The translations under genes were made by a program, and so were the position numbers. A stretch of 64,000 nt of DNA from Rhodoferax sp. (GTDB lineage Bacteria > Pseudomonadota > Gammaproteobacteria > Burkholderiales > Burkholderiaceae_C): NCBI RefSeq assembly GCF_028689295.1, contig NZ_JAQTWL010000010.1, forward strand, positions 1-64,000, read 5' to 3'. Below, in pieces: positions 7,910-31,490 of the stretch (position 1 is the first letter of the stretch; the number at the start of each line of letters is the position of its first letter). Under the pieces are notes generated by a model, which worked only from the letters and a program-made list of their open reading frames with translations, ran no database searches and was not told the DNA's origin.

Positions 7910-8002
7910 GGAAACGTGACCGAGTGGCCGAAGGTGCTCCCCTGCTAAGGGAGTATGGGGTGTAGAGCCTCATCGAGGGTTCGAATCCCTCCGTTTCCGC
8001 CA
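7910..8002 (+). tRNA. tRNA-Ser (GCT anticodon)
   Basis: A 93-nt tRNA with a perfect 7-bp acceptor stem (GGAAACG with CGTTTCC), anticodon stem CTCCC/GGGAG enclosing CTGCTAA (anticodon GCT, reading AGC/AGU), a long variable arm as expected for serine, a GGTTCGAATCC T-arm, and an encoded G plus CCA end. A CATAAT -10 element at 7887-7892 fits its promoter. The island integrase lies immediately downstream in the same orientation, so this gene is the likely attachment site. Confidence 0.97.
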
Positions 8003-8091: not shown

Positions 8092-8160
8092 AGGGGTATT
8101 GCAAGCTAGTGGCTAATGGGGGTATCTTTGGGGGCATGGGGGTATTCCAGTGGGGGTATC
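8092..8160 (+). repeat. GGGGGTAT tandem motifs at the left island end (integrase arm-site candidates)
   Basis: GGGGTAT-type motifs recur at about 8092, 8118, 8138 and 8152, just upstream of the integrase start. The same motif appears twice at 31470-31490, at the other end of the island, in the same orientation. P4-type integrases bind short direct repeats (arm sites) at both attachment ends through their N-terminal domain, so this is the natural reading. It is inferred from position and repetition only. Confidence 0.55.
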
Positions 8161-8187
8161 GCCAAAAAACAACCCTTGGAGTGCCCT

Positions 8188-9402
8188 ATGTCACTGACTG
8201 ATACAGCCATCAAGAAGGCCAAGCCGGGCGACAAACCTGTGAAACTGAGCGACGGCAGGGGCTTGTACCTACTGCTCAATCCCGTTGGCTCGAAGCTATG
8301 GCGCTGGAAATACCGGTATCTTGGCAAAGAGAAGGTGATGTCGCTGGGAGCCTATCCTGATGTTTCCCTGGCGCAGGCGCGCGACGGTATGGGTGAAGCG
8401 CGCAAGTTGTTGGCCAGCGGCACGGACCCCATGGCGCAGCGGGCCACCGACAAGATCACCAAACAGGCATCTGCTGAAAACTCTTTCCAGTCCGTGGCGT
8501 TGCTGTGGTGGGACCACTGGCACGGTGCCAAGAGTGCTCGCCATGCTGATGATGTGATGCGCCGCCTCAAGGCTGATGTCTTCCCCGCCATTGGCGCACG
8601 CCCGGTATCGGAGATACAGGCGCATGAGCTGGTGGCGATGGTGCTGACGATTTCAAAGCGGGGGGCATTGGATATTGCCAAACGGGCCTTGCAGACCTCT
8701 GGACAGGTTTTTCGATACGCGGTGGCCCATGGCCTGGCCCAACGCAATCCGGCCGGCGACATTAAGCCCAGCGACGTGCTGGCGTCCCGCAAGGCTGGTA
8801 ATTACGCACGCATCAGCGCCAAAGAGCTGCCTGAGCTGCTGCGGCACATCGAGGGCTATGCAGGCGCTGCCGTGACACGCATGGCCATGAAGTTGATGGC
8901 GCTGACCTTTGTCCGCACCTCTGAACTGATCGGCGCGCGCTGGGCCGAGTTTGACTTGGAAACGCGGCGCTGGGACATCCCCGCTTCGCGCATGAAGATG
9001 AAAACCCCGCACATCGTGCCGCTGTCCACCCAGGCGGTGAACGTGCTGCAAACGCTGCAACTGGTGTCCGGGCGCGGCAGGCTGCTGTTTCCGGGCGAGC
9101 GTGACCACGAAAAGTCCATGAGCAACAACACCATTTTGGGTGCGCTGGACCGCATGGGCTACAAGGGGCGCATGACCGGCCACGGATTCCGTGGCGTGGC
9201 TTCCACGTTGCTGCATGAAATGGGTTTTGACCATGCCCACATCGAACTGCAACTAGCGCACCAGGAACGCAACGAAGTGAGCGCCGCCTACAACCATGCA
9301 ACCTATCTCAAGCAACGGACCAAAATGATGCAGGATTGGGCGGATTACCTGGACCGTTGCACCACAGGCAAGGTGCTGGCGTTCGAGCGTAAACAAGCCT
9401 GA
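8188..9402 (+). CDS. P4-type tyrosine integrase of the island
   Basis: A 404-residue integrase with the DUF4102-like arm-binding domain (residues 5-90, including LSDGRGLYLLL), a core-binding domain to about residue 190, and the catalytic domain. Catalytic residues are visible: Arg in FVRTSE, HGFR (H-x-x-R), the AHQERNE segment, and the nucleophile Tyr in AAYNHATY. The chosen ATG has TTGGAG upstream and gives MSLTDTAIKKAK, typical of the family; an ATG at 8116 would translate through the arm-site repeats. Position next to tRNA-Ser marks the left end of the island. Confidence 0.94.
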   Translation: MSLTDTAIKKAKPGDKPVKLSDGRGLYLLLNPVGSKLWRWKYRYLGKEKVMSLGAYPDVSLAQARDGMGEARKLLASGTDPMAQRATDKITKQASAENSFQSVALLWWDHWHGAKSARHADDVMRRLKADVFPAIGARPVSEIQAHELVAMVLTISKRGALDIAKRALQTSGQVFRYAVAHGLAQRNPAGDIKPSDVLASRKAGNYARISAKELPELLRHIEGYAGAAVTRMAMKLMALTFVRTSELIGARWAEFDLETRRWDIPASRMKMKTPHIVPLSTQAVNVLQTLQLVSGRGRLLFPGERDHEKSMSNNTILGALDRMGYKGRMTGHGFRGVASTLLHEMGFDHAHIELQLAHQERNEVSAAYNHATYLKQRTKMMQDWADYLDRCTTGKVLAFERKQA

Positions 9403-9464
9403 TCGTCAGTGTTTGGGCGATACGAACTGGGATCAAATTTGTGATCACTCGATGACCCGATATA

Positions 9465-9502
9465 TTAAGACACTTGTTTAAATACAGTAATAGTGTTTTA
9501 AT
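9465..9502 (+). promoter_or_regulatory. MerR gene promoter with inverted repeat
   Basis: TTAAGACACT at 9465-9474 and AGTGTTTTAA at 9492-9501 form a 10-bp inverted repeat with one mismatch. A -35-like TTGTTT (9474-9479) and a -10-like TTTAAT (9497-9502) with a 17-bp spacer overlap it. Transcription would begin near 9509, only about one base before the MerR ATG at 9510, implying a leaderless or nearly leaderless mRNA. No Shine-Dalgarno sequence precedes that ATG, which fits. MerR-family regulators bind dyads lying between -35 and -10. Confidence 0.55.
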
Positions 9503-9509
9503 ATGTCCC

Positions 9510-9980
9510 ATGCCATCCGAAACAACGCCATCAATCCAAAGCTACCCACTCTCAGACCTGTGCGTGCTTGCAGATTTGCCCCTGCGCACGGTTCGCTATT
9601 ACGTCCAGGTTGGCTTGGTTGATCGCCCCGAGGGTGAGACCCGTGCCGCACGCTACGGCGCCAAACATCTTGAGCAATTGCTGCTAATCAAAAAGTGGAC
9701 AACGGCCGGGGTTTCTCTTGACCGTATCCGCCAACTACTCCAGGGCGAACCAGCGCCGGTGCCGCCACGCCACAAAGGCATTGGCACAGTTGAAGTGTGC
9801 AGTCACCTGATGGTCACAGACGGTATTGAGGTGGTCATCGAACCAGGCCGTGCTGGCATGACCCCCGAGCAAGTGCGTCATTTCATCAACGGGGTGATGA
9901 CGGTGTTTGCACAGGTCACTGGCGACCAATCGGCCGATGCAGCAGGCGCCGCAAAAGCCCAGAGCAAAAAAGCATCTTAA
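9510..9980 (+). CDS. MerR-family transcriptional regulator
   Basis: A 156-residue protein. A winged helix-turn-helix of MerR type occupies about residues 10-80: YPLSDLCVLADLPLRTVRYYVQVGLV is followed by YGAKHLEQLLLIKKW and VSLDRIRQLLQG. There is no cysteine cluster for metal sensing at the C-terminus; instead residues 95-140 form an uncharacterised domain and an Ala/Lys-rich tail. It is the first gene of a rightward cassette and lies 15 nt before the VIT/vWA gene, which it probably controls together with its own promoter. A TTG at 9474 keeps the frame open but lies inside the promoter. Confidence 0.82.
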   Translation: MPSETTPSIQSYPLSDLCVLADLPLRTVRYYVQVGLVDRPEGETRAARYGAKHLEQLLLIKKWTTAGVSLDRIRQLLQGEPAPVPPRHKGIGTVEVCSHLMVTDGIEVVIEPGRAGMTPEQVRHFINGVMTVFAQVTGDQSADAAGAAKAQSKKAS

Positions 9981-9995
9981 AAAGGGAGTAAAAAA

Positions 9996-12314
9996 ATGAG
10001 TCAAAAAGAACATGCGCAATTGACCTGCCGTGATGGTGCGCCGGTCATGCTGCAGGGTATCAATGTCTCCGGTGATCTGAACGGCTTGATGTTTGAAGCC
10101 AACATTGAGCAGCGTTTTTGCAACCCTACGGACAAGAACATGGAGGTGGTTTACACATTCCCCTTGCCGTGGGGTGCAGTCCTATTGGGTATTGATGTGC
10201 AGTTGGGTGACAAGCATCTGACTGGTGCCGTAGTCGAGAAGAAGCTCGCGGAAGCGCGTTATGAAGAAGCGCTCTCACAAGGCGATGCGGCCATCATGCT
10301 GGAAAAGAACCATGACCTCAGTTACAGCCTGAATCTCGGTAATTTGGCAGCCAAGGAAACCTGCGTCATCACGCTGCGTTATGCCCAGACGCTTCAATTT
10401 GAGCAAGGCGGTCTGCGTTTGTTGATCCCAACTGTGCTGGCACCGCGCTTTGGCGATGCGGTCATCGACGGCGGACTGCAGCCGCATCAGGCGCCTGTTC
10501 ATAGCCTTACCGTGGACTATCCATTCAATATCGAATTGCGATTGCACGGTGATTTGGCGGCGGCCCGGGTCTTGTCGCCGAGCCATCCGGTTGGCATGAG
10601 CCATACGTCCAAGGATGGTGCCAACGTGCTAACGGTCAGCTTGGGCCGCAGTGCATCGCTGGACCGTGACTTTGTGTTGGTGATCGATCAGTTGGCCCAT
10701 GATTCGGTAGCCCTGCTGGCGCGTGACATGGATGACGCTGATGGGCTGGCGGTAATGGCCAGTTTTTGCCCTCGAATTGAAACGCAGGCGGACAGTTTCA
10801 TCGCAGTAAAAATTCTGGTGGACTGCTCGGGTTCTATGAATGGTGAGAGCATAGAGGCGGCGAAACGCTCCCTGCAAGCCATCGTCGGGCAGTTCGGACA
10901 GCTTGATCGATTTTCCCTGTCAAGGTTCGGTAGCAGCGTTGAACACCGGTCGCGCGGACTGTGGTCGGTGACTGATGCCACACGGCTGGCAGCACGGCGC
11001 TGGGTTGGCGCACTGGTTGCCGACCTTGGCGGCACTGAAATGGAATCGGCTCTGGAATCGACCTTTGAACTATCGCAATTGGTGTCCAGCGACGTTTTGC
11101 TGATCACGGATGGCGAGATCGAGTCGATTGATCAAACCATCGAGGCAGCTCAAGCATCGGGCCATCGGGTATTTGTGGTGGGCATCGGCAGCAGCCCCGC
11201 AGAGGCGCATTTGCGTCGCCTGGCCGAAACCACTGGCGGTGCCTGTGACTTTGTGGCACCGGGTGAAGCTGTGGAGCCAGCCATCTTGCGGATGTTCGCG
11301 CGCCTGCGTTCACCAAGGTTAAGTGACCTGACGTTGGTTTGGCCCGACGGCTTCAGCCCAACCTGGACCACCGCGGTCCCCAAATCCGTGTTTTGTGGCG
11401 ACACAGTGAACCTGTTTGCCATGGCCAGGCAAATCCCCACGGGTATGGTGCGCCTCATGGGGCGCCTTGCCGATGATGGCGAACTGATAGAAATCGCCTG
11501 CGCACAACTCAGTGCCGATGTGCTGCAAAGTGACACCCTGTCGCGCATGGCCGTGGCGGATCACTTGCAGCGCAAATTCATGGTCAGGCCAGTCGGCACC
11601 AAAGCCTTTACCAAGGACCTGGCACTTGCCTACCAGTTGGTGACGGATCAGACCAACTTTTTGCTGATTCATGAACGCGCAGAAGCAGACAAACCCAAGG
11701 ACATGCCCGATCTGCACAAAGTCAGCCAGATGCTGGCCGCTGGATGGGGTGGTGTGGGCGGTCACCGTGTTGACGAACAAAACCCTCACTATGGGGTTGT
11801 CAGCGCTTCAAGTGGCGATTTTGATATGCCCATGTTTAGCCGCGCGCAAGCAACCACCCCCGCCGTCTGGCGCACGGCAAGGAGCGAGTCTGTTGTGCAA
11901 AAAGAAGTCATGACACCCATGGCGCTATGCGTGTGGCTGCGGAAAATTCCCGAGATCAACTGGCCAACGGATTACCAGACACTGTGCCAGTTGGGCGTAA
12001 AACGTTGGGTGGTCGAATGGCTGGAGATTGCGATGGCAGCGAATCACGACAAGGCGTTGACCGAACAAACCGTTGTGCGAACTTTCCTGTTCGTCATGGC
12101 TCGGCGCGACACATTTGATCGACTGTCTTTGACCCAGGCTGCGGAAGTGCGCAGCAATGGATTTGTGCAAATCGTCAAAGGAATCTTTGCCACGGTTCAT
12201 GGCGGCAGTAAAACGGGCGTCGATATGCAGCTTGCAGATGAAATCGCTGCAGCATTGCAAGGCATGACCGCTGATGTGTGGCCGGATCAGATTTACGAAT
12301 TGACTGTTGTCTGA
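9996..12314 (+). CDS. VIT and von Willebrand factor A domain protein
   Basis: A 772-residue protein without signal peptide or membrane segment, so presumably cytoplasmic. Residues 1-130 resemble a VIT domain (VYTFPLPWGAVL, KKLAEARYEEAL). The vWA domain spans about 268-430 with a complete metal-ion-dependent adhesion site: D276-x-S278-x-S280, T347 in GGTEM and D372 in TDGE. Residues 440-770 have no recognised fold. Ribosome-binding site AAAAGGGAG precedes the ATG. vWA domains usually act as metal-dependent scaffolds. Coupled to the MerR gene upstream and the 554-residue gene downstream; its role is unknown. Confidence 0.85.
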   Translation: MSQKEHAQLTCRDGAPVMLQGINVSGDLNGLMFEANIEQRFCNPTDKNMEVVYTFPLPWGAVLLGIDVQLGDKHLTGAVVEKKLAEARYEEALSQGDAAIMLEKNHDLSYSLNLGNLAAKETCVITLRYAQTLQFEQGGLRLLIPTVLAPRFGDAVIDGGLQPHQAPVHSLTVDYPFNIELRLHGDLAAARVLSPSHPVGMSHTSKDGANVLTVSLGRSASLDRDFVLVIDQLAHDSVALLARDMDDADGLAVMASFCPRIETQADSFIAVKILVDCSGSMNGESIEAAKRSLQAIVGQFGQLDRFSLSRFGSSVEHRSRGLWSVTDATRLAARRWVGALVADLGGTEMESALESTFELSQLVSSDVLLITDGEIESIDQTIEAAQASGHRVFVVGIGSSPAEAHLRRLAETTGGACDFVAPGEAVEPAILRMFARLRSPRLSDLTLVWPDGFSPTWTTAVPKSVFCGDTVNLFAMARQIPTGMVRLMGRLADDGELIEIACAQLSADVLQSDTLSRMAVADHLQRKFMVRPVGTKAFTKDLALAYQLVTDQTNFLLIHERAEADKPKDMPDLHKVSQMLAAGWGGVGGHRVDEQNPHYGVVSASSGDFDMPMFSRAQATTPAVWRTARSESVVQKEVMTPMALCVWLRKIPEINWPTDYQTLCQLGVKRWVVEWLEIAMAANHDKALTEQTVVRTFLFVMARRDTFDRLSLTQAAEVRSNGFVQIVKGIFATVHGGSKTGVDMQLADEIAAALQGMTADVWPDQIYELTVV

Positions 12315-12351
12315 GCATGTGAGGCCAATATGCCCAACGTTCTAATTCGCC

Positions 12352-14016
12352 ATGGTCACCGCCACCAAAACTCTTGAACTGCGCTTTTCAGAGTGTGACT
12401 ATGGCCTGTCTGCTCGTCGCCTTTGGGAGCACACCGAGTTGGGGCAGATCAATGTATTCGGCCGTGCCATCAGTCAGCAGCCGGGTGCCAACATGGCAGC
12501 CGCGTTTATCGATGTTGTCCGTTTTGATGGGGAAACCTTTTCGCTGCTTGACATGACGCTAGCCGAACTACAGGCTGGTCAGTTTCAACCAAATACTTCG
12601 TTTCGCATCAATACCGAGTTGAGTCACCGAGTGAAGACGCAGCGAGGGCAGGCATTCGTCCGTGCGGTGGCAGCGCACCTTCAGCAATGTGCGACCAGGC
12701 AAGCCGTGCGCAATCTTCAACATGGCTTTCTGCCTGTTGCACGCACAGGTGATTCCTTTGGCGTGCCGTACATTTTTAGCACCTTGCAGCGTCGGCTAAG
12801 GGAAATGGGCAATTCAAAAGCTGCAGGCGTGCAGTGGATGAGAACCATCGAAAACTTTCAAAAGAAAGGCATGCGTGCCGAAGAGATGGAATTTGCAGAC
12901 TTGTTTCCTGACTTGAATGTGGCGGACGATGCAAATGCTCAGCTCACAGGCGCGGCATTGGCGCGCTTGTGTCATTTCAAAGACTTGCGAATTTCAGTGA
13001 TTCCGGTGATCAGCGACGCACAACGGCAGTTGCAATTTGCCAAGCCTACTGGCCGCAAGCTGACGCGCACCAAGAATTTGTCCAAGGCTTTGGTAGCATT
13101 ACCCAGGACGGTTTCCAGCTTCGAGCCTGCGCTGGGCTACCGTATCGAGGAGGTAGAGCATGAGTCACTTTGGGGTGCTGAAAAAAGCTGGCAGGCTGTC
13201 ACCTTTGGCGGCAAAGTTATCAGTACTCCCGTAGGGCAAACTGGCTTTCAGACGGCTGAAGCGGCAGCAGGGTTGGCCAATCAACACGCCAAAGAGCATT
13301 TCCCCAAACGCATGGCGCTCGGGCGCTTTGGTCACTGCGCCTGGACGGGTGGCCAGGATTACCGGGAATGGCTGATCACGTTGCCTTATTACCCAATGAC
13401 TTATTTGTCAGGTCACTTCAAGGTTCGAAACGTGCTGGCCCATGTTCGCTGTGACGTGCGACTCGGTGCGGATGACGAGCGGGTCCTGATGTTGCAGGAG
13501 GCGCAGAGCGACTGGGCACAGCGGGCGCGCAAGGCTTCCAGTACGGGCACCATGGAAGCGGATGATGAGGTGCCTCCACCGTTCATGAAAGAGTGGTCGG
13601 CGCTGGTGATGAAGCTGGTGATGCTGCACGCGGCGCACCAAGGGCTCGATGCTGTGGCCTGGACGCGCGGCGCGCATCAGGTGCACCGATGGAATGGATT
13701 AGGTGCGGCAGGGCTGATTGAGTTGTACGACCGCACACTGCCGCGCGAGGTCAATCGGATCATGAAACCATTCGGTGGAGCGTGCGAGACGCTGGGGGTG
13801 TTTGTGCCGACCAATTTCAGCATCAAGCAAACGGAGAACGGGTACGAGGTCCATTCACCAGAACATGGGCTGTTAGGGACTGCGTCGACGCTGGAAGACG
13901 CCAGGGAGTTTGTTCCTGACAAAGGACATGAATTGCTATATGACGTTCATGGGGTGCGATTGACCGCGGCGATGCGTAAAGCGATTCTCGGCAGTGGATT
14001 CCCGGCCTGGGGTTGA
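12352..14016 (+). CDS. unknown protein resembling a module of phage polyvalent proteins
   Basis: A 554-residue protein. Residues about 335-475 recall a segment found in large phage and plasmid polyvalent proteins: YREWLITLP, then NVLAHVR, then EAQSDW (EIQSDW in the phage proteins), then a Pro-rich stretch, GLDAVAWTRG and LYDRTLP. An upstream WMRTIENFQKKG segment near residue 162 also matches that pattern. The resemblance is from memory. The first 140 residues are unrecognised. No Shine-Dalgarno precedes the ATG; a 15-codon ORF (12330-12377) with GAGG before it overlaps the start and could couple translation. Biochemical role unknown. Confidence 0.7.
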   Translation: MVTATKTLELRFSECDYGLSARRLWEHTELGQINVFGRAISQQPGANMAAAFIDVVRFDGETFSLLDMTLAELQAGQFQPNTSFRINTELSHRVKTQRGQAFVRAVAAHLQQCATRQAVRNLQHGFLPVARTGDSFGVPYIFSTLQRRLREMGNSKAAGVQWMRTIENFQKKGMRAEEMEFADLFPDLNVADDANAQLTGAALARLCHFKDLRISVIPVISDAQRQLQFAKPTGRKLTRTKNLSKALVALPRTVSSFEPALGYRIEEVEHESLWGAEKSWQAVTFGGKVISTPVGQTGFQTAEAAAGLANQHAKEHFPKRMALGRFGHCAWTGGQDYREWLITLPYYPMTYLSGHFKVRNVLAHVRCDVRLGADDERVLMLQEAQSDWAQRARKASSTGTMEADDEVPPPFMKEWSALVMKLVMLHAAHQGLDAVAWTRGAHQVHRWNGLGAAGLIELYDRTLPREVNRIMKPFGGACETLGVFVPTNFSIKQTENGYEVHSPEHGLLGTASTLEDAREFVPDKGHELLYDVHGVRLTAAMRKAILGSGFPAWG

Positions 14017-14128
14017 AAATGGGTCGATCAAAGTTGACAGTGTCGGTCACAAACTACCCACTCCCGCAGGAAAGAATCGGGCAGCCTGATCCGTTGGCAC
14101 CGGACTATGTGGGGACCTACAGTCCACC

Positions 14129-14323
14129 GTGTCCTTATATGACACACTGGCACCACTTGGTGACCCAGCCTCTTGGTCAACACATGAGGTCGCCATCCAG
14201 CAGTGGGTTGACTCCAACATTGTTTATCTGTCGCAGGTGGTTCTCTTGACAAACTTCAAATCGACCTCGCACTTGATAAACGCATTTTTTGAGGCTGCAC
14301 AAGGGGATAGCAATGCCGAATAG
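14129..14323 (+). CDS. small hypothetical protein (64 aa)
   Basis: A 64-residue ORF with a GTG start, reading MSLYDTLAPLGDPASW at its beginning. It overlaps the start of the next ORF by 11 nt, as in translationally coupled genes. A competing ORF starting at TTG 14013 overlaps it in another frame, so a frameshift joining the two frames is possible. No homology recognised. Expression is uncertain. Confidence 0.35.
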   Translation: MSLYDTLAPLGDPASWSTHEVAIQQWVDSNIVYLSQVVLLTNFKSTSHLINAFFEAAQGDSNAE

Positions 14324-14705
14324 ATCACACGAAATCATCAAGGCGTTCTGGGCACTTGGTGACTATTTCTCTCGATTGGGTGGCGCTGCCCGATATTTCA
14401 ATATGAGCGAGTCTGAGATACCGCTCTACATAGCCTGCCGGTTGTCGAAAAAGCTAACTTCGGCCTTTGAACCACGGGACTATGTAAGCGATCAATTTGT
14501 CAAGTCTGCTTCGCCCGTATTGGGGGTGGTTCACTCTCATCTCGAAATGGTAACGGCACAAGCGGATGAACTGGTTGGTCTCATTCAAGAGTTCATAGGT
14601 TACGTCAATTCAAAGTTAAAACCAGAGGACCGCTCGGCCAGATGGGACCGATTCGTTGAGTGGTTTACCCAGGCGTACGGCCAGTCGAATGTTGGCGGCT
14701 TGTAG
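14313..14705 (+). CDS. hypothetical protein, last gene of the MerR/vWA cassette
   Basis: A 130-residue, mostly helical protein without signal peptide or membrane segment. A good ribosome-binding site (AAGGGGAT) lies 5 nt before the ATG at 14313, which gives MPNRSHEIIKAF. Features: a helix around FWALGDYFSRLGGAARYF, and later VHSHLEMVTAQADEL. I do not recognise the family. It follows the 554-residue gene and the 64-residue ORF on the same strand and is therefore probably part of that operon. Confidence 0.6.
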   Translation: MPNRSHEIIKAFWALGDYFSRLGGAARYFNMSESEIPLYIACRLSKKLTSAFEPRDYVSDQFVKSASPVLGVVHSHLEMVTAQADELVGLIQEFIGYVNSKLKPEDRSARWDRFVEWFTQAYGQSNVGGL

Positions 14706-15718
14706 CTTCTAAATTGAGGATCGCAGCCGCCCAGTTATATCGACTTGGTCACGTTGCTGATGAATGAATGGCTTGTTGTGCTTAACCCTCGGCGCTACAG
14801 ACTCAGGATACGAATATCAGTGCTTCGCAAGTGTTAGTCAGCGCGCTGGAGCGCGGACATGGCCGATACGCCGTCAGCTTTGGCAAGCAGCGCAGTCGTG
14901 CCGGTTCCCCTGCCCATAGAAGGGCGCTTTGCGCCAACGGCTGGGCAACCGACGCCACTGCTTAGTGCTCGATCGACGTTCCGGGTCTTTCAGCCAGTTG
15001 GCACGGCGGTGCTCCGCCCTGCCAAAGCATTAGGCTACGGCTCGCTAGCGCATCGTGCTGACACCCCGTAGCCACCAGCGTGGTCATGCGCCCCTGCAAG
15101 TCGCTTTGCTTTGTTTCCGGGCCACATCACCACTTTCGCCGGTTCAACGGCCTGGGTTGCCAGTCAGTGCGCGCGGCGCTGCTGCACCCCGCGCAGTCGC
15201 CCGCAGAGGTACATGGCCAGTGCTTCGCAGTATGGCAGCCAGAGCGCCGTGGCGCTGGGTGTGGCCACGGCTCGCTGCGCATCGTGGCTGGGCGCCGGAT
15301 TTACGGCAGTGACGGTATCCACAGCTTCGGCCACACGCTTCGCTTTTACATAAGGCCCCACTGCGTGAAGTGCCCGCCAGTCAGTCGCGCAGCTCCTTTG
15401 GTGTCGTCCACCGCTTCGCGCCCTTGCGGGTTTACGCAGCAGGCATTATGCAAAGTGGCCTACGCTGGTCCGGGCTTGTCAGCCGTCTGCACTCCCCAGC
15501 CGCTGCGCGTCTGACGTGCCGCCGCCTGCCGCCCTCGTGTTGTGCTGGCGCTCTGGTATCAGTCAGGCGCTATGCGCATGGCTTTGGCCAGCGGCTTCGT
15601 CGTGCATCTTGTGTTTGCCCCCGCCCACCCCTGGGCTTGCTTGCTTCGCAGCTTTGCCCGCGCGTTCTGCCCGTCCGCCCCCCGTGGGGGCTCCCTCAAC
15701 CGCGCTGAAGCGGTGGCA
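14706..15718. other. 1-kb region without a convincing gene, dense in short hairpins
   Basis: All open frames here have atypical composition and none has a start with a ribosome-binding site. What is visible is secondary structure: GGCGC/GCGCC near 14922, GGCGG/CCGCC near 15005, GCGCT/AGCGC near 14843, GCCCCC/GGGGGC near 15676, CCGC/GCGG near 15700, and at least six CTTCGC or CTTCGG loops. There are also imperfect internal repeats: a 24-nt pair at 15037-15060 and 15267-15290, and a 12-nt identical pair at 14818-14829 and 15218-15229, exactly 400 nt apart. It may be a structured RNA, an attachment region of the second recombinase, or decayed DNA. Confidence 0.45.
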
Positions 15719-16816: not shown

Positions 16817-16829
16817 GGTCTGTTGCTCC

Positions 16830-17300: not shown

Positions 17301-17321
17301 GGTGTTGCTCCGTCATGTCAG

Positions 17322-19907: not shown

Positions 19908-19917
19908 TGCGGCCACC

Positions 19918-22341: not shown

Positions 22342-22554
22342 ATTGCCAAGACCACCACGCTGACCTTGCGCATTGAGTCCAACTTGAAAGAAGCGTTATG
22401 TACTGTCACCGACCGCGTCCACCGATCCATCGCCAACATGATTGAAATGATGCTTCAGGATTATTGCGGGCGCGAAGGGGTTGAGATTCAGGAGCACGAG
22501 GTGCAGACACCGAAGGGCAAGCGCGGTTCCAAAATTAATTACGAATACCAATAA
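22342..22554 (+). CDS. ribbon-helix-helix regulator heading the type I R-M operon
   Basis: About 70 residues. The sequence TTTLTLRIESNLKEAL (beta strand then helix) followed by HRSIANMIEMMLQDY is a typical RHH fold of antitoxins and small repressors. The homologous start would be MAKTTT, but here the codon at 22342 is ATT, giving IAKTTT. In-frame alternatives are a TTG at 22315, which lies inside the candidate operator, and ATGs much further upstream that run into the divergent gene. Either an ATT start is used or the gene has lost its ATG. hsdM starts 34 nt downstream. Function as autoregulator is inferred. Confidence 0.6.
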   Translation: MAKTTTLTLRIESNLKEALCTVTDRVHRSIANMIEMMLQDYCGREGVEIQEHEVQTPKGKRGSKINYEYQ

Positions 22555-22588
22555 CCCCAAACACGCATGCAACCGGACCCCTACTACC

Positions 22589-24649
22589 ATGAACGACACC
22601 TCCAAATTCAACCCCGTCGTCAGCTTCCTTTGGGCGATTGCCGACCTCCTCAACGGTGCTTTCCAGAAAAGCGAGTTCCAGAAGATCATCCTGCCCTTCA
22701 CCGTGCTGCGCCGTCTGGACTACGCCCTGGAGAAAACCAAGGCCAAGGTGCTAGAGACCGAGCACACGCTGAAGGAGAAGGGCCTTGAGAACCGCCACGG
22801 GCAATTGTGCCGCGCTGCCGGTTACGCCTTCTACAACACCTCCAAGTTCAGCTACGAAAGCCTACTGCACGATGACGCCAATCTGGCGCTGAACCTGCGC
22901 CAGTATGTGATGGGTTTCTCGCCCAATGTCCGCGAGATATTCGCCGCCTTCAATTTCGATGACACTATCCGCGACCTCGGTCGGGTCAACCTGCTCTACC
23001 TGCTCATGGAGCGCTTCAATGAGAAGAGCAAGGTGGACCTGCGGCCCTCCTCCATGTCTAACCACGCGATGGGCTATGTCTTCGAGCACTTGCTGCGCAA
23101 GTTCAACGAATCCTTAAACGCAAACCCCGGCGAACACTTCACGCCCCGCGATGCCATCCACCTGATGGTGGATCTGGTGCTCATGCTCGACACCGAGCTG
23201 GCAGGCACCGAGGGCGTCACCCGCACGGTCTATGACTGCGGCTGCGGCACCGGCGGCATCCTCTCCATCACCAAGGAGCACGTTCTTCAGATCAACCCGC
23301 AGGCCAAGGTCTTTCTCTACGGGCAGGAGCTGAACCCGTTCACCTGGGCCATCGCCCGCGCCGACATGCTTATTCTGGAGCCCGAGGGCAAGGACGCGGA
23401 AAACATCAAGCTCGGCAGCACTCTCTCCAACGACCAGCTCTCGGACATGCGCTTCGACCTCCAGTTCGTGAATCCACCCTACGGCTACGAGTGGAGCAAG
23501 GACTACGACGCCGTCACCGCTGAGGCGGCACGAGGTTTCGATGGCCGCTTCGGAGCTGGTCTGCCGCGCAAGTCGGATGGCCAGATGCTCTTCTTGCAGC
23601 ACCTCATCGCCCGGATGAACGACCCGGAGGAATCCCAGAGCTACATCGGCATCATTCTTAACGGCTCGCCGCTCTTCACCGGCGGCGCGGGCTCGGGCGA
23701 ATCGGAAATCCGCCGCTGGATCATGGAAAACGACTGGCTGGAGGCCATCGTCGCCCTGCCGCAGCAGATCTTTTACAACACCGGCATCGGCACCTACATC
23801 TGGCTGCTCAGCAATCGCAAACCTGCCAAACACAAGGGCAAGGTTATGCTGGTGGATGCCTCGGGAGAGCAATTCTGGTCGGGCATGTCCAAGAGTCTCG
23901 GAAGCAAACGCCGCGAGATCACCGACACCCACAAGCAGGCCATCCTCAAGCTGGTCAAGGACCGCGAGCCTGGCCCGCATGTCAAGATGTTCGACACCAC
24001 CGATTTCGGCTACCGCGAGATCAAGGTGCTGCGCCCGCTCAAGCTGCACTTTGAGGTCAATGCCGAGTCGCTCGCCCGTCTCGATGCACAGGCGGCCTTC
24101 AAGAATCTGGCGGTGAGCAAGAAGAAAGACCCTGCCGAGCAGAAGCGGGAGGAGAGAGAGGGCCTCGCCCTGCAAGCGGAGGTCCGCGCCGCCTTGCAAA
24201 TCCTCGCGGGCAAGACCTTCATCTGCCGCGACAAGTTCACCGCCGAACTGGAGGCCACGCTCAAGAAGGCGGGCTTGAAGCTCAAAGCCCCCGTGCTCAA
24301 AGCCATTCTGGGTGGCATCGGCGAGCGCGATGACGCCGCCGAGATCTGCCGCGACAGCGACGGCAACCCCGAGCCCGACACCGACCTGAACGACACCGAG
24401 AATGTGCCGCTCAAGGAGTCGATTGAAACGTACTTTGCCCGCGAAGTGACACCGCATGTGCCTGATGCGTGGATTGATTCCGCCTACTGCGACGACAAGG
24501 ACGGCCAGGTGGGGCGCGTCGGCTACGAGATCCCGTTCAACCGGCACTTCTATGTGTTCCAGCCGCCCCGACCCCTGAGCGCGATCGATGCCGACCTGAA
24601 GGCTGTCACCGACCGCATCCTCACGATGATCGGAGGGCTGACCCAATGA
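22589..24649 (+). CDS. hsdM: type I restriction-modification system, adenine methyltransferase subunit
   Basis: A 686-residue HsdM. An N-terminal HsdM_N domain begins FNPVVSFLWAIADLLNGAF. The SAM-binding motif I is D216-CGCGTGG and the catalytic motif IV is NPPY at residues 295-298, so this is an N6-adenine methylase. The C-terminal 200 residues are charged and probably contact HsdS. The ATG at 22589 gives MNDTSKF; the open frame upstream to 22481 overlaps the RHH gene and is unlikely. It overlaps hsdS by 4 nt (ATGA), so the two are coupled. Confidence 0.95.
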   Translation: MNDTSKFNPVVSFLWAIADLLNGAFQKSEFQKIILPFTVLRRLDYALEKTKAKVLETEHTLKEKGLENRHGQLCRAAGYAFYNTSKFSYESLLHDDANLALNLRQYVMGFSPNVREIFAAFNFDDTIRDLGRVNLLYLLMERFNEKSKVDLRPSSMSNHAMGYVFEHLLRKFNESLNANPGEHFTPRDAIHLMVDLVLMLDTELAGTEGVTRTVYDCGCGTGGILSITKEHVLQINPQAKVFLYGQELNPFTWAIARADMLILEPEGKDAENIKLGSTLSNDQLSDMRFDLQFVNPPYGYEWSKDYDAVTAEAARGFDGRFGAGLPRKSDGQMLFLQHLIARMNDPEESQSYIGIILNGSPLFTGGAGSGESEIRRWIMENDWLEAIVALPQQIFYNTGIGTYIWLLSNRKPAKHKGKVMLVDASGEQFWSGMSKSLGSKRREITDTHKQAILKLVKDREPGPHVKMFDTTDFGYREIKVLRPLKLHFEVNAESLARLDAQAAFKNLAVSKKKDPAEQKREEREGLALQAEVRAALQILAGKTFICRDKFTAELEATLKKAGLKLKAPVLKAILGGIGERDDAAEICRDSDGNPEPDTDLNDTENVPLKESIETYFAREVTPHVPDAWIDSAYCDDKDGQVGRVGYEIPFNRHFYVFQPPRPLSAIDADLKAVTDRILTMIGGLTQ

Positions 24650-25980
24650 GCTTCCCGCGTTATCCGAAATACAAGGCCAGCGGGGTGGAATGGCTGGGGG
24701 ATGTGCCGGTGCATTGGGACGTAAAGCCCTTGAAATACTCAACTCTCATTTATACGGGGAACAGCCTAAACGAGTCTGAAAAGGTGTTGTATGAAAGCAC
24801 CGACCCTGAATCGTTCCCTTATATATCTTCAAAGGATATAGATTTGGAAACCCATGAGGTTCAGTATGAAAATGGACTCAAAATTCCCAAAGAAAAATGC
24901 AATCTGAAAGTAGCCGAAAGTGGCACCTTTCTTCTATGCATCGAGGGAGGAAGCGCGGGTAGGAAAGTGGCTTTGCTTAATCACGATGTTTGCTTTGTAA
25001 ATAAACTGTGCTGTTTCTCATCGAAGCAAAACAACAAATTTAGATTCTATTTTTCTCAAACTCAGAATTTCAAAGACAAATTTGGACTCTCATTAACAGG
25101 ATTGATAGGTGGTGTTTCAACTTCTCTTCTTAAAAATTTTCAGCTCCCCACTCCAGCAAACCATGATCAAACCGCCATTGCGCAGTTTCTGGACCGGGAG
25201 ACTGGGAAGATTGACAAGCTGGTGGCGGAGCAGCGGCGGTTGATGGAACTGCTGAAAGAAAAGCGCCAGGCCGTCATCTCCCACGCCGTCACCAAAGGCA
25301 TCAACCCCAACGCCCCAATGAAGCCTTCCGGCATCAAATGGCTCGGCGATGTGCCGGAGGGGTGGGAGATTGCCTCAATAAAGCACTACGCTGAAACCAT
25401 TACGGATGGCGCGCACATATCGCCGGATACGGTGAACGGCATCTATCCATTTGTCTCTACGAAGGATACATCAGATGATTTGATCGACTTCGACAACTGC
25501 TTACGAACTTCGGAGGAAAGCTTCGCGTATTTAGTTAGGACTGGCTGCAAGCCCTTGGTTGGGGACGTGCTTTTCAGCAAAGATGGAACAATTGGACGGA
25601 CCGTTGTTGTGAAAGAGGACCGCGACTTTGTTGTTGCATCGTCACTAATCATCATCCGTCCAAAAGCAAAGACTCTTGATCCCGATTACCTAAACTATCT
25701 TTGCCAATCGGGTATCGTCGCGGGTCAAGTCGAATCCTTTGTAAAAGGCGCCGGACTTCCAAGGCTTTCGATTCAGAATCTCGTTCGCGTGTTGGGTTGT
25801 TTCCCGCCACTCGCACGGCAGAAGGAAGTCGCTTCGTTTCTTGGTAAGGAGCTATCCAAATTCTACGCACTCACCGCCGAAGCCCAACGCGCCATCGTCC
25901 TCCTACAAGAACGCCGCACCGCGCTAATCTCTGCCGCCGTCACCGGTCAGATTGATGTGTGTCAGCCAACAGAAAACTAA
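24646..25980 (+). CDS. hsdS: type I restriction-modification system, specificity subunit
   Basis: A 444-residue HsdS with the expected two-fold repeat: GVEWLGDVP at residues 13-21 and GIKWLGDVP near residue 229 begin each target-recognition domain. Two helical spacers follow (AQFLDRETGKIDKLVAEQRR and VASFLGKELSKFYALTAEAQ), each ending in a conserved AVIS/ALIS-AVT turn. Each recognition domain reads one half of a bipartite DNA target. The first recognition domain (about 24730-25150) is strikingly AT-rich compared with hsdM and hsdR, as if it had been exchanged by recombination. The target sequence cannot be predicted from this. Confidence 0.93.
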   Translation: MSFPRYPKYKASGVEWLGDVPVHWDVKPLKYSTLIYTGNSLNESEKVLYESTDPESFPYISSKDIDLETHEVQYENGLKIPKEKCNLKVAESGTFLLCIEGGSAGRKVALLNHDVCFVNKLCCFSSKQNNKFRFYFSQTQNFKDKFGLSLTGLIGGVSTSLLKNFQLPTPANHDQTAIAQFLDRETGKIDKLVAEQRRLMELLKEKRQAVISHAVTKGINPNAPMKPSGIKWLGDVPEGWEIASIKHYAETITDGAHISPDTVNGIYPFVSTKDTSDDLIDFDNCLRTSEESFAYLVRTGCKPLVGDVLFSKDGTIGRTVVVKEDRDFVVASSLIIIRPKAKTLDPDYLNYLCQSGIVAGQVESFVKGAGLPRLSIQNLVRVLGCFPPLARQKEVASFLGKELSKFYALTAEAQRAIVLLQERRTALISAAVTGQIDVCQPTEN

Positions 25981-25982
25981 TC

Positions 25983-26504
25983 ATGACAAGTGCAGCAAAA
26001 TTGAAAAAGGTCCGCGCCGTAAATGCCGGCCCCAAGTCGGGTCCGGCCCAAGCCAGGAGAAGACTTTACGGTAATGCAATTACCCGAATTAACAATGCTA
26101 TTGAACATCGTTATCCGCTTGAGTCCATTGCGCTGCTCGAAAGCATGATGGCTGATCGGCTTGAAGCGCGTTTGGCTTGGCTTCACCAACAAGGAGTCAA
26201 TAAACGAGAGTTTTCCACGCTTGGGAAACTGACCCAGGAGCTATGCAGCGCCCTATCTAATGAGAGCGACGAGGCGAAGTCCGTTTACGAAGCCATTAAA
26301 GCATGGGCCAATCGTCGAAATGAAGCGCTTCATCAAATGGCCAAACTTGTTGAGGATGACCCCAAGGATTGGAAAGCACGGCTGCGAGAAGCACAAGCCA
26401 CCGCAGAAGCTGGGGTGCCACTCTTTAATAAAGTTACCGCGTTAGTCAGAAAACTAAACAGACCTCCAAAGCCGGTCGTCGCTGCGACGCAACCCCGGAA
26501 CTAA
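25983..26504 (+). CDS. HEPN-like protein embedded between hsdS and hsdR
   Basis: A 173-residue, helical protein starting 2 nt after hsdS and ending 2 nt before hsdR, hence part of the operon. Residues 30-70 form long helices (LESMMADRLEARLAWL). R112-N-E-A-L-H117 matches the R-N-x3-H signature of HEPN-fold ribonucleases. The N-terminal 25 residues are basic. PrrC, the anticodon nuclease guarding the E. coli prr type I system, also has a HEPN nuclease, so an RNA-targeting fallback is one reading. Without structure prediction the fold is a hypothesis; a structural accessory of HsdS is the alternative. Confidence 0.6.
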   Translation: MTSAAKLKKVRAVNAGPKSGPAQARRRLYGNAITRINNAIEHRYPLESIALLESMMADRLEARLAWLHQQGVNKREFSTLGKLTQELCSALSNESDEAKSVYEAIKAWANRRNEALHQMAKLVEDDPKDWKARLREAQATAEAGVPLFNKVTALVRKLNRPPKPVVAATQPRN

Positions 26505-26506
26505 CC

Positions 26507-29485
26507 ATGGCCAAAATCACTTCTGAATACACGTTTGAAGAACACATCGAAGATGTATTGCTGAAGTCGCATGGCTTCTTCGGCGCCAAGCAGGACGACT
26601 ACGACAAAGCACTGTGCCTGCGGCCTGCAACGGTCATCCAGTTCATCCGCGCCACACAAACAAAGAAGTGGGCCGACTACTGCGAGCTGATCGATGATCT
26701 GGATCAGGCCAAGCGCAACCTGCTCAAGCGCATTAAGGACGTGGTGGACAAGGAAGGCACGCTGCACGCCCTGCGCAAAGGCTTCGACATTCACGGCGGT
26801 GGGCATTTCGACCTTTGCTATTTCGAGCCAACCAACCCGGTGGCCGAGGAAAGCCGGCGGCTCTATAAAGAAAACCTCCTCCACCTGCAGCGGCAGGTGA
26901 AGTTCTCCGATCAAGACGAGAAGTCGCTCGACATGGGCATTTTTCTGAACGGCTTGCCCATCTTCACCATCGAGCTGAAGAACCAGATCTCTGGGCAAAA
27001 TGTGACTCACGCACTGAAGCAATACAAAGCCACACGGGACCCCAAGGAGCCGCTGTTCCGCTTCAAGCGCTGCCTCGCCCACTTTGCCGTGGACAATGAT
27101 TTGGTCTATGTGACTACCGAACTCGCCGGCGCCAAAACCCAGTTTCTGCCATTCAATCAAGGCGCGGACGGCGGTGCGGGCAATCCGCCCTGCAAGGTCG
27201 GCTATGCGACCAGTTACCTGTGGCAGGATGTCTGGCAGAAGCCGCGCATCCTCGACCTGATCCAGCGCTTCATCCGCGTGGTAGATGTGCTGGATGACAA
27301 GGGCCGGCCAACCGGCAAACAACGGCAAATCTTCCCGCGCTTTCACCAACTGACTTGCGTGCGCGAGCTGGGCGCCGACGCCCAGAAGCACGGGGCCGGT
27401 CGGCGTTACCTAAACCAGCACAGCGCCGGCAGCGGTAAAACCAACTGCATCGCCTGGCTGGCCAATAGCCTGGCCACCCTGCACACGCCGGACGGCAAAC
27501 CGGTGTTCAGCTCAGTGATCGTGATCTCGGATCGGCGGGTCATCGACCGCCAGTTGCAACGCACGTTGAAGCAAGTGATCGAGACCCCGGGCATGCTGGT
27601 CAACATCGCCGCCGATGACGGAATGACCGCGAAGGATCTCAAGACGGCGCTGGAAGACGGCAAGCGCATCATCGTCACCACGCTGCAAAAGTTCGGCGTC
27701 ATCATGGACAGCATGGGTGAGCTACCGGGTGAGCGCTTTGCGGTGATCGTGGATGAAGCGCACTCCTCGCAGGGTGGTGACAGTGCCAAGGCGGTGGAAA
27801 AAGTGTTGTCCTATGCTTCGGAAGACGAGCAGAACGACGAAGAGGAGAAGACTGTCGAGGATCGGATTCTGGAGGAGCTGAAGCATCGCGGCCCGCAAAA
27901 GAATGTGAGCCACTTCGCATTCACCGCCACACCCAAGCCCGAGACCTTGCGACAGTTCGGCACTAGGCAGGCGGATGGCACTTACAAGCCCTGCAGCCTC
28001 TACACCATGCGCCAAGCGATCGAGGAGGGCTTTATTCTCGATGTTCTAAAGAACTACGCCACCTATGACCAGTACTGGAAGCTGCTAAAGAAGGTGAAGG
28101 ACGATCCCAGGGTCGATGAGGTCAAGGCCAAGACCCTGCTCAGGCAGTTCGTCAGCCGCCACGAGCGCACCATCGCCAAGAAGGTGGCCATCATCGTGGA
28201 TCACTTTCAAACGTCGGTCAGCGCCAAGCTGGGCGGCAAAGCCAAGGCGATGATCGTCACTTCCTCGCGGCTGCACGCAGTGCGATACCGGCTGGCCGTG
28301 GATGCCTATTTGAAATCCATCGGCAGTCCATTCAAGGCGCTGGTGGCGTTCACCGACGTGGTAAAAGATTCCAAGGACGGCAAGGAATACACCGAAGCCA
28401 AGATGAACGGATTCCCCCAAGCGGCGACGGCGGATCGGTTCGAGGCGGACGACTGCCGCTTCCTGATCGTGGCAAGCAAGTTCCAAACCGGCTTCGATCA
28501 GCCCAAGCTGATGGCGATGTATGTGGACAAGAAGCTCAGCGGCGTGGCGTGCGTGCAGACGCTCTCGCGACTGAACCGCACCATGGCCGGCAAGGAAGAG
28601 ACCTTTGTGCTGGACTTTGAAAACAGCGCCGAGGACATAGAGAAGGGATTTCAGCCGTTTTACGACCGCATCACGCTTTCAAAGGAGACCGACCCGCACC
28701 AGCTCTACAACATCCGCACCGACCTCGATAAATTCGCCATTCATGAGGCGGCAGATGTGGAGGCGTTCGCCAAGCTTTGGTTTGTTGATAAGCCGAAGAT
28801 TGACAAGCTCCACGCCGCCGTCGATCTGGTGGCAGCGAAGTGGAAGAAGGAAGCCGAAGAAGAGCAAGTGGACTACAAGTCCAAGGCGCGGGATTTCGTG
28901 AAGCTCTACTCGTTCATCTCACACCTTGTTCCGCTCCGAGATGTTGGGCTGGAAAAACTCTACGTGTTCCTGCGGTTCCTGCTGCCGAAGCTGCCTGCCA
29001 AGAAGGGCGAGTTGCCGCTGGAGGTGCTTGGCATGGTGGACATGGAAAAGCTCGCCGTGCGCAAGAACGACAAAAAGGATATTGGACTGAAGCGCGGTGA
29101 AACGAAGGTTGATCCGCTCAACTACGGCGGTGGAGCCACCTTGACGGACGGAGAGTACGAGGCGCTCTCGAAGATCATTGGAGACCTAAACACGCGTTTC
29201 AATACCTCGTTCACCGAAGATGAGGTCATGGTGATCAAACACCTCGAAAAGAAGATCGGGGAAGACGAGGCATTACAGCAGCAGCTCAAGAACGGCTCGC
29301 GTCACGCTGTGGAAGCTACCTTCCAGCAGGTAGCTAAAGATGCATTTGAAGACCTGGTGAACGATAACTTCAAGTTCTACAAGAAAGTTAGCGAAGACGA
29401 CGAAGTGTCGAAGGAATTCTTTGCCCGCCTGTTTGAGTGGTATGTCGAGGGGCGCTCGAAAAGTCCACCAAAGAAGAAGGGCTGA
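26507..29485 (+). CDS. hsdR: type I restriction-modification system, endonuclease/translocase subunit
   Basis: A 992-residue HsdR. The N-terminal nuclease has the D142...E156-L-K158 catalytic pattern (DMGIFLNGLPIFTIELKN). The superfamily 2 motor follows: Walker A SAGSGKT at residues 306-312, DEAH at 416-419, FTATP near residue 475, and QTLSRLNR (motif VI) near residue 687. The C-terminal helical region (about 750-990) should bind the methylase core. All motifs are intact, so with hsdM and hsdS the system appears functional. Confidence 0.95.
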   Translation: MAKITSEYTFEEHIEDVLLKSHGFFGAKQDDYDKALCLRPATVIQFIRATQTKKWADYCELIDDLDQAKRNLLKRIKDVVDKEGTLHALRKGFDIHGGGHFDLCYFEPTNPVAEESRRLYKENLLHLQRQVKFSDQDEKSLDMGIFLNGLPIFTIELKNQISGQNVTHALKQYKATRDPKEPLFRFKRCLAHFAVDNDLVYVTTELAGAKTQFLPFNQGADGGAGNPPCKVGYATSYLWQDVWQKPRILDLIQRFIRVVDVLDDKGRPTGKQRQIFPRFHQLTCVRELGADAQKHGAGRRYLNQHSAGSGKTNCIAWLANSLATLHTPDGKPVFSSVIVISDRRVIDRQLQRTLKQVIETPGMLVNIAADDGMTAKDLKTALEDGKRIIVTTLQKFGVIMDSMGELPGERFAVIVDEAHSSQGGDSAKAVEKVLSYASEDEQNDEEEKTVEDRILEELKHRGPQKNVSHFAFTATPKPETLRQFGTRQADGTYKPCSLYTMRQAIEEGFILDVLKNYATYDQYWKLLKKVKDDPRVDEVKAKTLLRQFVSRHERTIAKKVAIIVDHFQTSVSAKLGGKAKAMIVTSSRLHAVRYRLAVDAYLKSIGSPFKALVAFTDVVKDSKDGKEYTEAKMNGFPQAATADRFEADDCRFLIVASKFQTGFDQPKLMAMYVDKKLSGVACVQTLSRLNRTMAGKEETFVLDFENSAEDIEKGFQPFYDRITLSKETDPHQLYNIRTDLDKFAIHEAADVEAFAKLWFVDKPKIDKLHAAVDLVAAKWKKEAEEEQVDYKSKARDFVKLYSFISHLVPLRDVGLEKLYVFLRFLLPKLPAKKGELPLEVLGMVDMEKLAVRKNDKKDIGLKRGETKVDPLNYGGGATLTDGEYEALSKIIGDLNTRFNTSFTEDEVMVIKHLEKKIGEDEALQQQLKNGSRHAVEATFQQVAKDAFEDLVNDNFKFYKKVSEDDEVSKEFFARLFEWYVEGRSKSPPKKKG

Positions 29486-30061: not shown

Positions 30062-30087
30062 ACGGTTCATTTATCCAAAGGTTACCC

Positions 30088-31469: not shown

Positions 31470-31490
31470 GGGGGTATTTATGGGGGTATT
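31470..31490 (+). repeat. GGGGGTAT repeats at the right island end
   Basis: Two GGGGGTAT motifs at 31470-31477 and 31482-31489 match those at 8092-8160 beside the integrase. They are in the same orientation. Together with the change from unknown genes to core genes (phaC), they mark the right island end between about 31490 and 31600. No long copy of the tRNA 3' end is present; only the 7-mer CTCCGTT at 31552-31558 is shared, too short to call an att site. Confidence 0.5.

What the first reader, a model, noticed from the sequence alone, without database searches (positions are those of the whole stretch)
9465..14705. MerR - VIT/vWA - polyvalent-like cassette in a tRNA-Ser island
Directly behind the island integrase lie five ORFs in one direction: a MerR regulator with its own dyad promoter, a 772-residue VIT/vWA protein with an intact MIDAS, a 554-residue protein resembling a module of phage polyvalent proteins, and two small ORFs. 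I know no named system with this composition. vWA proteins often form scaffolds in conflict systems, and the third gene recalls proteins that phages inject or carry. The cassette could be a defence, anti-defence or regulatory module.
Basis: partly seen in the sequence, partly recalled or inferred. Interest (0 to 1): 0.7.

Follow-up and report, generated by a model that had tools for sequence, protein, structure and literature searches.

The report
Mobile regulator-scaffold gene pair with phage-type cargo
A bacterial genomic island carries a widespread but unstudied gene pair (a regulator and a protein-binding scaffold) that here runs into a third gene related to parts of proteins that phages inject into cells; it may belong to a defence against phages, which is untested.

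Summary
Behind the tRNA-Ser integrase lie MerR (9510-9980), a 772-aa VIT/vWA protein with an intact MIDAS and a 554-aa protein, with gaps of 15 and 37 bp; two weakly supported small ORFs follow. They sit in a roughly 23.5-kb island that also carries type I restriction genes.

The cassette is two things joined. (1) MerR plus VIT/vWA is a conserved mobile pair: 12 of 12 best order-level matches and 5 of 5 class-level matches have MerR directly upstream. 16 of 22 MerR upstream regions hold a dyad ACAGTnnnACTGT (at most 2 mismatches). No defence or effector gene recurs beside the pair. (2) The 554-aa protein is a stand-alone, cell-encoded relative of a module of phage polyvalent proteins. In 32 inspected loci its family lies near sirtuins (6), cpYpsA/SLOG genes (4), ADP-ribosylglycohydrolases (3), vWA genes (5, window included) and HmaABC (1).

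The two parts meet rarely: in the window and in one Piscinibacter locus. Best reading: a MerR-controlled scaffold that has captured an NAD/ADP-ribose-linked conflict effector.

The parts
7910..8002 (+). tRNA-Ser (GCT), insertion point of the island
   Evidence: ARAGORN, Rfam
8116..9402 (+). tyrosine integrase of the island
   Evidence: Arm-DNA-bind_3, Phage_int_M, Phage_integrase
9459..9507 (+). outer inverted repeat (16-nt arms, 17 nt apart) around the proposed MerR promoter
9474..9503 (+). proposed MerR promoter: -35 TTGTTT (9474-9479), 18-nt spacer, -10 TTAATA (9498-9503); the MerR ATG lies 6 nt further, so the transcript is probably leaderless
   Evidence: read from the sequence and from the aligned upstream regions; not found by the consensus scan
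9484..9496 (+). proposed MerR operator ACAGTAATAGTGT inside the spacer
   Evidence: at most 2 mismatches to ACAGTnnnACTGT in 16 of 22 loci; shuffles mean 2.0, maximum 7
9510..9980 (+). MerR-family regulator, 156 aa, with a conserved C-terminal segment and no cysteine conserved across the family
   Evidence: MerR_1; alignment by eye of 13 family members
9996..12314 (+). VIT/vWA protein, 772 aa; VIT 19-129, vWA 270-417, MIDAS D276 S278 S280 T347 D372; best solved relative PARP4
12352..14016 (+). 554-aa protein of the polyvalent module type (E-x-Q-S-D-W, here EAQSDW at 383-388); no Pfam family
14129..14323 (+). 64-aa ORF, uncertain gene
   Evidence: no family match above a cut-off
14313..14705 (+). 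130-aa ORF (138 aa from TTG 14289), uncertain gene
   Evidence: no family match above a cut-off; no plasmid match
8118..8159 (+). three GGGGGTAT repeats at the left island end (8118, 8138, 8152); possible integrase arm sites
   Evidence: read from the sequence
31470..31489 (+). two GGGGGTAT repeats near the right island end (31470, 31482); end placed at about 31.56 kb
   Evidence: read from the sequence; congener G961 matches from 31566 and has 3.6 kb where the window has 23.5 kb
22481..29485 (+). type I restriction-modification genes of the same island (context, not part of the cassette)
   Evidence: PADLOC MTase_I, Specificity_I, REase_I

Best explanation
The cassette is an island-borne operon made of a conserved two-gene module, MerR plus VIT/vWA, with a captured third gene. 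Shown: the pair is conserved and mobile, the dyad upstream of MerR is conserved, and the third protein belongs to a family that shares a module with phage polyvalent proteins and lies unusually often near NAD/ADP-ribose enzymes. Inferred: MerR represses its own leaderless operon through the dyad until a signal of infection or damage appears; the VIT/vWA protein binds an extended peptide through its metal site and acts as chaperone or scaffold; the 554-aa protein is an enzyme that acts on, or in response to, NAD+/ADP-ribose-modified targets during a conflict with a phage or plasmid.
For: Pair: 12 of 12 order-level vWA matches with E below 1e-60 have MerR directly upstream, as do 5 of 5 class-level matches. 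Dyad: 16 of 22. MIDAS kept. Gene gaps of 15 and 37 bp in the window. Second instance of MerR-vWA followed by the 554-aa family in L023, in the order MerR, vWA, 612-aa protein, 549-aa homologue at 29% identity. Family near SIR2 in 6 of 32 loci, directly adjacent on the same strand in 4, near ADP-ribosylglycohydrolase in 3 of 32, near cpYpsA in 4 of 32, one of them a weak fragment. Against genome-wide densities of 27 SIR2 and 18 ARG matches in 60 genomes, 0.06 and 0.04 loci would be expected in the 31 non-window loci. Closest relative 82 bp behind HmaABC. A published prediction of ARG-centred anti-ADP-ribosylation operons lists vWA chaperones, WYL regulators and HD phosphatases (PMC9503650, section 3.8 read).
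Against: The three genes are rarely together. If islands concentrate such genes 20-fold, the enrichments fall to P = 0.04 (SIR2), 0.05 (ARG) and 0.11 (MerR-vWA in L023). The window itself has no SIR2 or ARG gene, nor has the rest of its genome at E 1e-10. 0 of 17 Hma loci in the family sample carry a member of the 554-aa family within the fetched flank. In five related symbiont loci (L011-L015) the gene sits among ordinary chromosomal genes, which argues against a purely defensive role there. PMC9503650 defined its ARG systems by the absence of sirtuins. No structure, no catalytic assignment, no phage data.
Confidence: 0.42

Rival explanations
1. Chance neighbours: MerR-VIT/vWA is a self-contained stress or envelope regulator pair, and the 554-aa gene is unrelated mobile cargo that happens to sit behind it.
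For: No third gene recurs behind the pair: among 14 vWA loci the only other families shared by 2 or 3 loci lie in L205, L206 and L208, a LysR-like gene and two metabolic-looking genes by my reading. 0 of 14 pair loci have the 554-aa family.
Against: Same strand and gaps of 15 and 37 bp in the window; L023 repeats the order with a protein only 29% identical; three gammaproteobacterial loci (L016, L020, L031) carry another kind of vWA gene 441-702 bp upstream of the family member.
Confidence: 0.33
2. Anti-defence module of the island or of its past vehicle: the 554-aa protein is a solo polyvalent domain that protects incoming DNA, with MerR and vWA controlling or carrying it.
For: The module occurs in long phage ORFs (80 of 80 viral loci fetched with it; median 1482 aa for the 52 not cut by a locus end), beside ART-PolyVal, LPD38, LPD3 and PBECR5, and next to internal virion proteins in HTVC028P. 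Plasmid relatives exist in three records, one beside a DotH/IcmK gene. PMC5512222 says that solo LPDs occur outside polyvalent proteins (passages).
Against: The stand-alone family has its own N-terminal region and its own cellular neighbourhoods, some of them chromosomal.
Confidence: 0.15
3. Toxin-antitoxin-like pair: MerR doubles as antitoxin and keeps the VIT/vWA protein or the 554-aa protein in check.
For: Autoregulatory layout with a dyad in the promoter; conserved MerR C-terminal segment without the conserved cysteines of metal sensors.
Against: No toxin fold known in VIT/vWA; no PADLOC match for vWA or the 554-aa protein.
Confidence: 0.1

Closest known systems
Phage and plasmid polyvalent proteins (Iyer et al. 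2017, PMC5512222; passages seen)
   Same: Shares one conserved module (…YRE…LP…H…N.L.H.R…E.QSDW…) with phage proteins that also hold ART-PolyVal, LPD3, LPD38 or PBECR5
   Different: 554 aa, stand-alone, cell-encoded, with its own N-terminal region; which LPD, if any, it equals could not be tested because their alignments are not held and Pfam has no match
ARG-centred systems predicted to counter viral ADP-ribosylation (PMC9503650, section 3.8 read)
   Same: Relatives lie with ADP-ribosylglycohydrolase, WYL regulators, HD phosphatase or vWA proteins
   Different: The window has no ARG gene and is controlled by MerR; several relatives are coupled to sirtuins, which that definition excludes
Hma (helicase-methylase-ATPase; PMC8565338, passages seen)
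   Same: The closest relative of the 554-aa protein follows HmaABC in Polaromonas L008
   Different: The window genome has no HmaC match; 0 of 17 other Hma loci carry the gene
MoxR-vWA ternary conflict systems (PMC7159879, passages seen)
   Same: vWA with intact MIDAS next to variable partners
   Different: No MoxR ATPase in the cassette; VIT domain fused to vWA; the paper has no mention of MerR in a text search
Vault PARP4 and inter-alpha-trypsin inhibitor heavy chains
   Same: VIT-vWA arrangement (PARP4 E 7.1e-24, ITIH4 1.3e-5)
   Different: No PARP catalytic domain in P0002

Membership tests
MerR-VIT/vWA pair | MerR directly upstream on the same strand | tested here: met
   12 of 12 order matches below E 1e-60, 13 of 28 at E 1e-20; 5 of 5 class matches
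MerR-VIT/vWA pair | Dyad ACAGTnnnACTGT in the MerR promoter | tested here: met
   1 mismatch in the window; 16 of 22 loci at most 2 mismatches
Classical metal- or redox-sensing MerR (MerR, CueR, CadR, SoxR) | Score above the NCBIfam cut-off of such an equivalog | tested here: not met
   MerR 28.6 of 150.85 bits, CadR 28.0 of 151.45, CueR 27.0 of 147.4, SoxR 12.9 of 116.9
Polyvalent-protein module | Sequence homology to a domain of phage polyvalent proteins | tested here: met
   tblastn E 9e-6 and 1e-5 to two phages; family HMM finds the module in 80 of 80 viral loci fetched
Polyvalent-protein module | Several domains in one large polypeptide | tested here: not met
   554 aa, no other Pfam domain
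Polyvalent-protein module | Identity with a named LPD (LPD1-LPD40) | not testable with these tools
   No Pfam match; the LPD alignments are not held
ARG-centred anti-ADP-ribosylation system | ADP-ribosylglycohydrolase in the operon | tested here: not met
   Genome-wide search of the window's genome: no PF03747 match at E 1e-10
ARG-centred anti-ADP-ribosylation system | Peptide-binding chaperone such as vWA | tested here: met
   VIT/vWA with intact MIDAS
ARG-centred anti-ADP-ribosylation system | Nudix or WYL regulator | tested here: not met
   The regulator is MerR
Hma | HmaA, HmaB and HmaC | tested here: not met
   No HmaC match in G000
MoxR-vWA ternary system | MoxR AAA+ ATPase beside vWA | tested here: not met
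   None among the cassette ORFs
Any defence system in PADLOC-DB 2.0.0 | Profile match for the cassette proteins | tested here: not met
   Only P0001 to mad1 at E 0.014
Anti-phage defence | Reduced phage plating | not testable with these tools
   Needs an experiment

The most novel reading that the evidence does not exclude
Bacteria keep a stand-alone version of a phage-injected polyvalent module as an enzyme in NAD/ADP-ribose conflict systems, and in this island it is held by a PARP4-like VIT/vWA scaffold under a MerR switch: a new kind of defence operon against phage ADP-ribosylation or other injected effectors.
Probability: 0.18. Interest if true: 0.8.

Novelty: new variant of a known kind. 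Interest (0 to 1): 0.5.

Why it matters
VIT/vWA proteins are annotated in many bacteria, and four searches of the held library listed no paper whose title or abstract start describes the MerR-VIT/vWA pair; the papers listed there were not opened for this, apart from passages of two. A conserved operator and leaderless promoter make the regulator directly testable. The 554-aa family links phage polyvalent proteins with cellular sirtuin, ADP-ribosylglycohydrolase and SLOG neighbourhoods, which gives a first handle on an abundant phage domain without a Pfam family.

Tried and rejected
A profile search of solved structures with the 554-aa family gave one chance repeat match, a designed PPR, E 0.018. 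A viral-contig scan with the VIT/vWA protein found no relative, nor did the phage collection. No exact repeat of the tRNA 3' end was found at the right island end. Hma as a regular partner was tested and rejected: 0 of 17 loci. A three-gene conserved system was tested and rejected. A metal-sensor role of MerR was rejected on NCBIfam scores.

Rows dropped before counts: the 32-locus list leaves out L017 (my ORF picker chose the wrong strand there), L026 (copy of L027), L225 (copy of L024), L034, L035 and L066 (shorter or cut members, neighbours not inspected), L214 and L228 (fragments), the distant plasmid members L004, L005, L050 and L058, and the long polyvalent ORFs among L037-L086. L222 and L224 are two members on one contig. 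L229 and L199 are the same plasmid. In one search every viral locus was fetched because it has the module, so 80 of 80 is no frequency. SIR2, ARG and cpYpsA hits come from profiles seeded with some of the same loci, so they are presence calls, not independent discoveries; Pfam confirmed L030 (SIR2), L010 and L222 (ARG) and L027 (cpYpsA), and one search found the L222 sirtuin independently. Shuffles kept base composition only.
Full report
OBSERVATION. The island starts in tRNA-Ser (7910-8002), followed by a tyrosine integrase (8116-9402). A congener, G961, has the tRNA and the gene that begins right of the island only 3.6 kb apart (44804 and 48446 on its contig 11), where the window has 23.5 kb (8002 to 31566), so the island is an insertion of about that size. 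GC is 0.51-0.63 across the island, lowest at 20-22 kb, against about 0.59-0.62 to the left. The island also carries type I restriction genes at 22481-29485. Neither the 554-aa protein nor its relatives occur in any other of 299 genomes drawn from the family.

THE PAIR. The 772-aa protein matches VIT and vWA models; its best solved relative is the VIT-vWA part of PARP4 (residues 9-581, E 7.1e-24). In 300 genomes of the order 28 have a match at E 1e-20, the window's own included. Of the 28 non-window places 13 have MerR next to vWA; of the 12 below E 1e-60 all 12 do. In the class sample 5 of 5 non-window matches at E 1e-80 have MerR. More distant VIT/vWA proteins mostly lack it, so the pair is a subfamily. 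Two plasmids carry the pair, in Massilia sp. H6 and Aquabacterium olei; the latter lies near AbiEii and a DNA methyltransferase. In L196 the pair is beside spaced repeats that look like a CRISPR array (my reading). No further gene family recurs beside the pair apart from three families shared by L205, L206 and L208, which look metabolic or LysR-like by my reading.

CONTROL REGION. Comparing MerR upstream regions shows a shorter core, ACAGTnnnACTGT, with at most 2 mismatches in 16 of 22 loci; 200 composition shuffles gave a mean of 2.0 and a maximum of 7. L023 has the same half-sites with a 2-nt spacer, which the scan did not count. The core sits between a -35-like TTG and a -10-like element, and in many loci the MerR ATG follows the latter by 6-7 nt (by eye). 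I infer autoregulation and a leaderless MerR transcript. A plain sigma-70 scan did not find this site and found no more sites than shuffles did. MerR scores far below the cut-offs of metal and redox sensors. Its C-terminal segment (…EV.SHL.V.DG.E..IEP..AGL…) is conserved without a cysteine shared by the family, so its signal is unknown.

THE THIRD PROTEIN. It has no Pfam or NCBIfam match and a chance-level PHROG match. tblastn finds three plasmid records and two phage records. One of the phage proteins, 2387 aa from Dolichospermum phage Dfl-JY45, has four ART-PolyVal stretches and, by eye, two copies of the module; the other lies between genes for an internal protein and an internal virion protein. 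In the 80 viral loci fetched with the module it lies in ORFs with a median of 1482 aa (52 ORFs not cut by a locus end); of six such ORFs scanned, three had LPD38, PBECR5 or LPD3 and three had no Pfam match. So the polyvalent reading is right.

ITS FAMILY. A scan of 84,980 species genomes gave 86 relatives, of which 79 loci were kept. About thirty encode a stand-alone protein of roughly 435-590 aa, mostly in Beta- and Gammaproteobacteria. Invariant residues in 23 members include G333, Y337, E339, H355, N360, H364, R366, E383, Q385, S386, D387 and W388, which looks enzymatic (inference). The window protein forms a clade with L008 (61% identical), L009 and L010. Their neighbours are: MerR-vWA (window); HmaABC, 82 bp upstream on the same strand (L008); a divergent OLD/AAA-type ATPase (L009); and LPD1 and ADP-ribosylglycohydrolase genes within 4 kb on the same strand (L010).

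NAD AND ADP-RIBOSE LINK. Among 32 inspected loci a sirtuin lies near the gene in 6 (L030, L033, L036, L222, L226, L227), directly adjacent on the same strand in 4 (L030, L036, L226, L227). In L030 and L226 the sirtuin is fused to a domain related to a 515-aa protein that occupies the same place in L027 and L029. ARG genes lie in 3 loci (L010, L222, L226), cpYpsA in 4 (L027, L028, L029 and, as a weak fragment, L030). With 27 SIR2 and 18 ARG matches in 60 genomes one expects 0.06 and 0.04 in the DNA inspected; counting Methylotenera once, 4 and 3 independent cases give P = 6e-7 and 1e-5, or 0.04 and 0.05 if islands concentrate such genes 20-fold. A sirtuin of the same type also lies beside the MerR-vWA pair in L204, on the opposite strand, and an ARG fragment lies about 5.5 kb from the pair in L195. 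L195 and L224, from two genomes of one genus, share the same WYL regulator, beside MerR-vWA in one and beside the 554-aa family in the other. These ties make a loose, exchangeable network, not a fixed system.

vWA LINK. Besides the window and L023, three gammaproteobacterial loci (L016, L020, L031) have a vWA gene 460, 702 and 441 bp upstream of the family member; in L016 it follows a CbbQ-type ATPase by Pfam. That is 5 of 32 loci with a vWA neighbour of two different kinds. Against this, L011-L015 keep the gene between ordinary chromosomal genes.

CO-OCCURRENCE OF THE THREE. From 12 pairs in 299 genomes one expects 0.006 pairs in the non-window loci; one was seen, L023 (P = 0.006, or 0.11 with 20-fold island enrichment). 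None of 14 pair loci held with longer flanks has the third gene. The three-gene operon is therefore a rare assembly, though the gaps of 15 and 37 bp suggest that it is transcribed as one in this island (inference).

MECHANISM. The published prediction nearest to this is the ARG-centred operons thought to undo viral ADP-ribosylation, with WYL or Nudix repressors, phosphatases and vWA chaperones (PMC9503650, section 3.8 read). The window lacks the defining ARG gene, so it is not a member; it may work alongside that logic, with MerR as switch, VIT/vWA as peptide-binding scaffold and the 554-aa protein as effector. I hold this at 0.42, chance neighbours at 0.33, anti-defence at 0.15 and a toxin-antitoxin-like pair at 0.1.

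LITERATURE. Passages were seen of PMC5512222, PMC8565338, PMC7159879, PMC4245714 and PMC9503650, with section 3.8 of the last read whole; other papers were seen as search listings only. Searches for the pair listed no paper that describes it by title or abstract start. The held library lacks most subscription papers.

Noticed in passing
window 22481-29485: Type I restriction genes (HsdM, HsdS, HsdR types) in the same island.
   Followed up: partly
window 15719-16843 (-) and 16830-19916 (-): A second tyrosine recombinase, a small HTH-type ORF and an 864-aa ORF in the middle of the island suggest that two mobile elements are stacked behind the tRNA.
   Followed up: no
window 14710-15720: About 1 kb rich in imperfect repeats and inverted repeats between the cassette and the second recombinase, without a convincing gene.
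   Followed up: no
window 30040-31371: A 443-aa protein at the right end of the island, 26% identical over 227 aa to a protein some 6 kb from the 554-aa family member on the Caballeronia plasmid pSBC2-5 (L003); no PADLOC or NCBIfam match.
   Followed up: partly
L196 12357-15652: Spaced 28-bp-like repeats beside the MerR-vWA pair that look like a type I-F CRISPR array (by eye).
   Followed up: no
L023, L026, L027, L062: A 553-612-aa protein (FVWPEPRVSAG) recurs upstream of the 554-aa family; I took it for PLD-like by eye, but Pfam (L027) and PADLOC (L027, L062) have no match.
   Followed up: partly
L195 6308-7440 and L026/L027: Two unknown genes (178 aa and a 199-aa membrane-like protein) are shared between a MerR-vWA locus and loci of the 554-aa family.
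   Followed up: partly
L010 6881-7699: A solo LPD1 protein in a cellular locus, close to ADP-ribosylglycohydrolase and the 554-aa family.
   Followed up: partly
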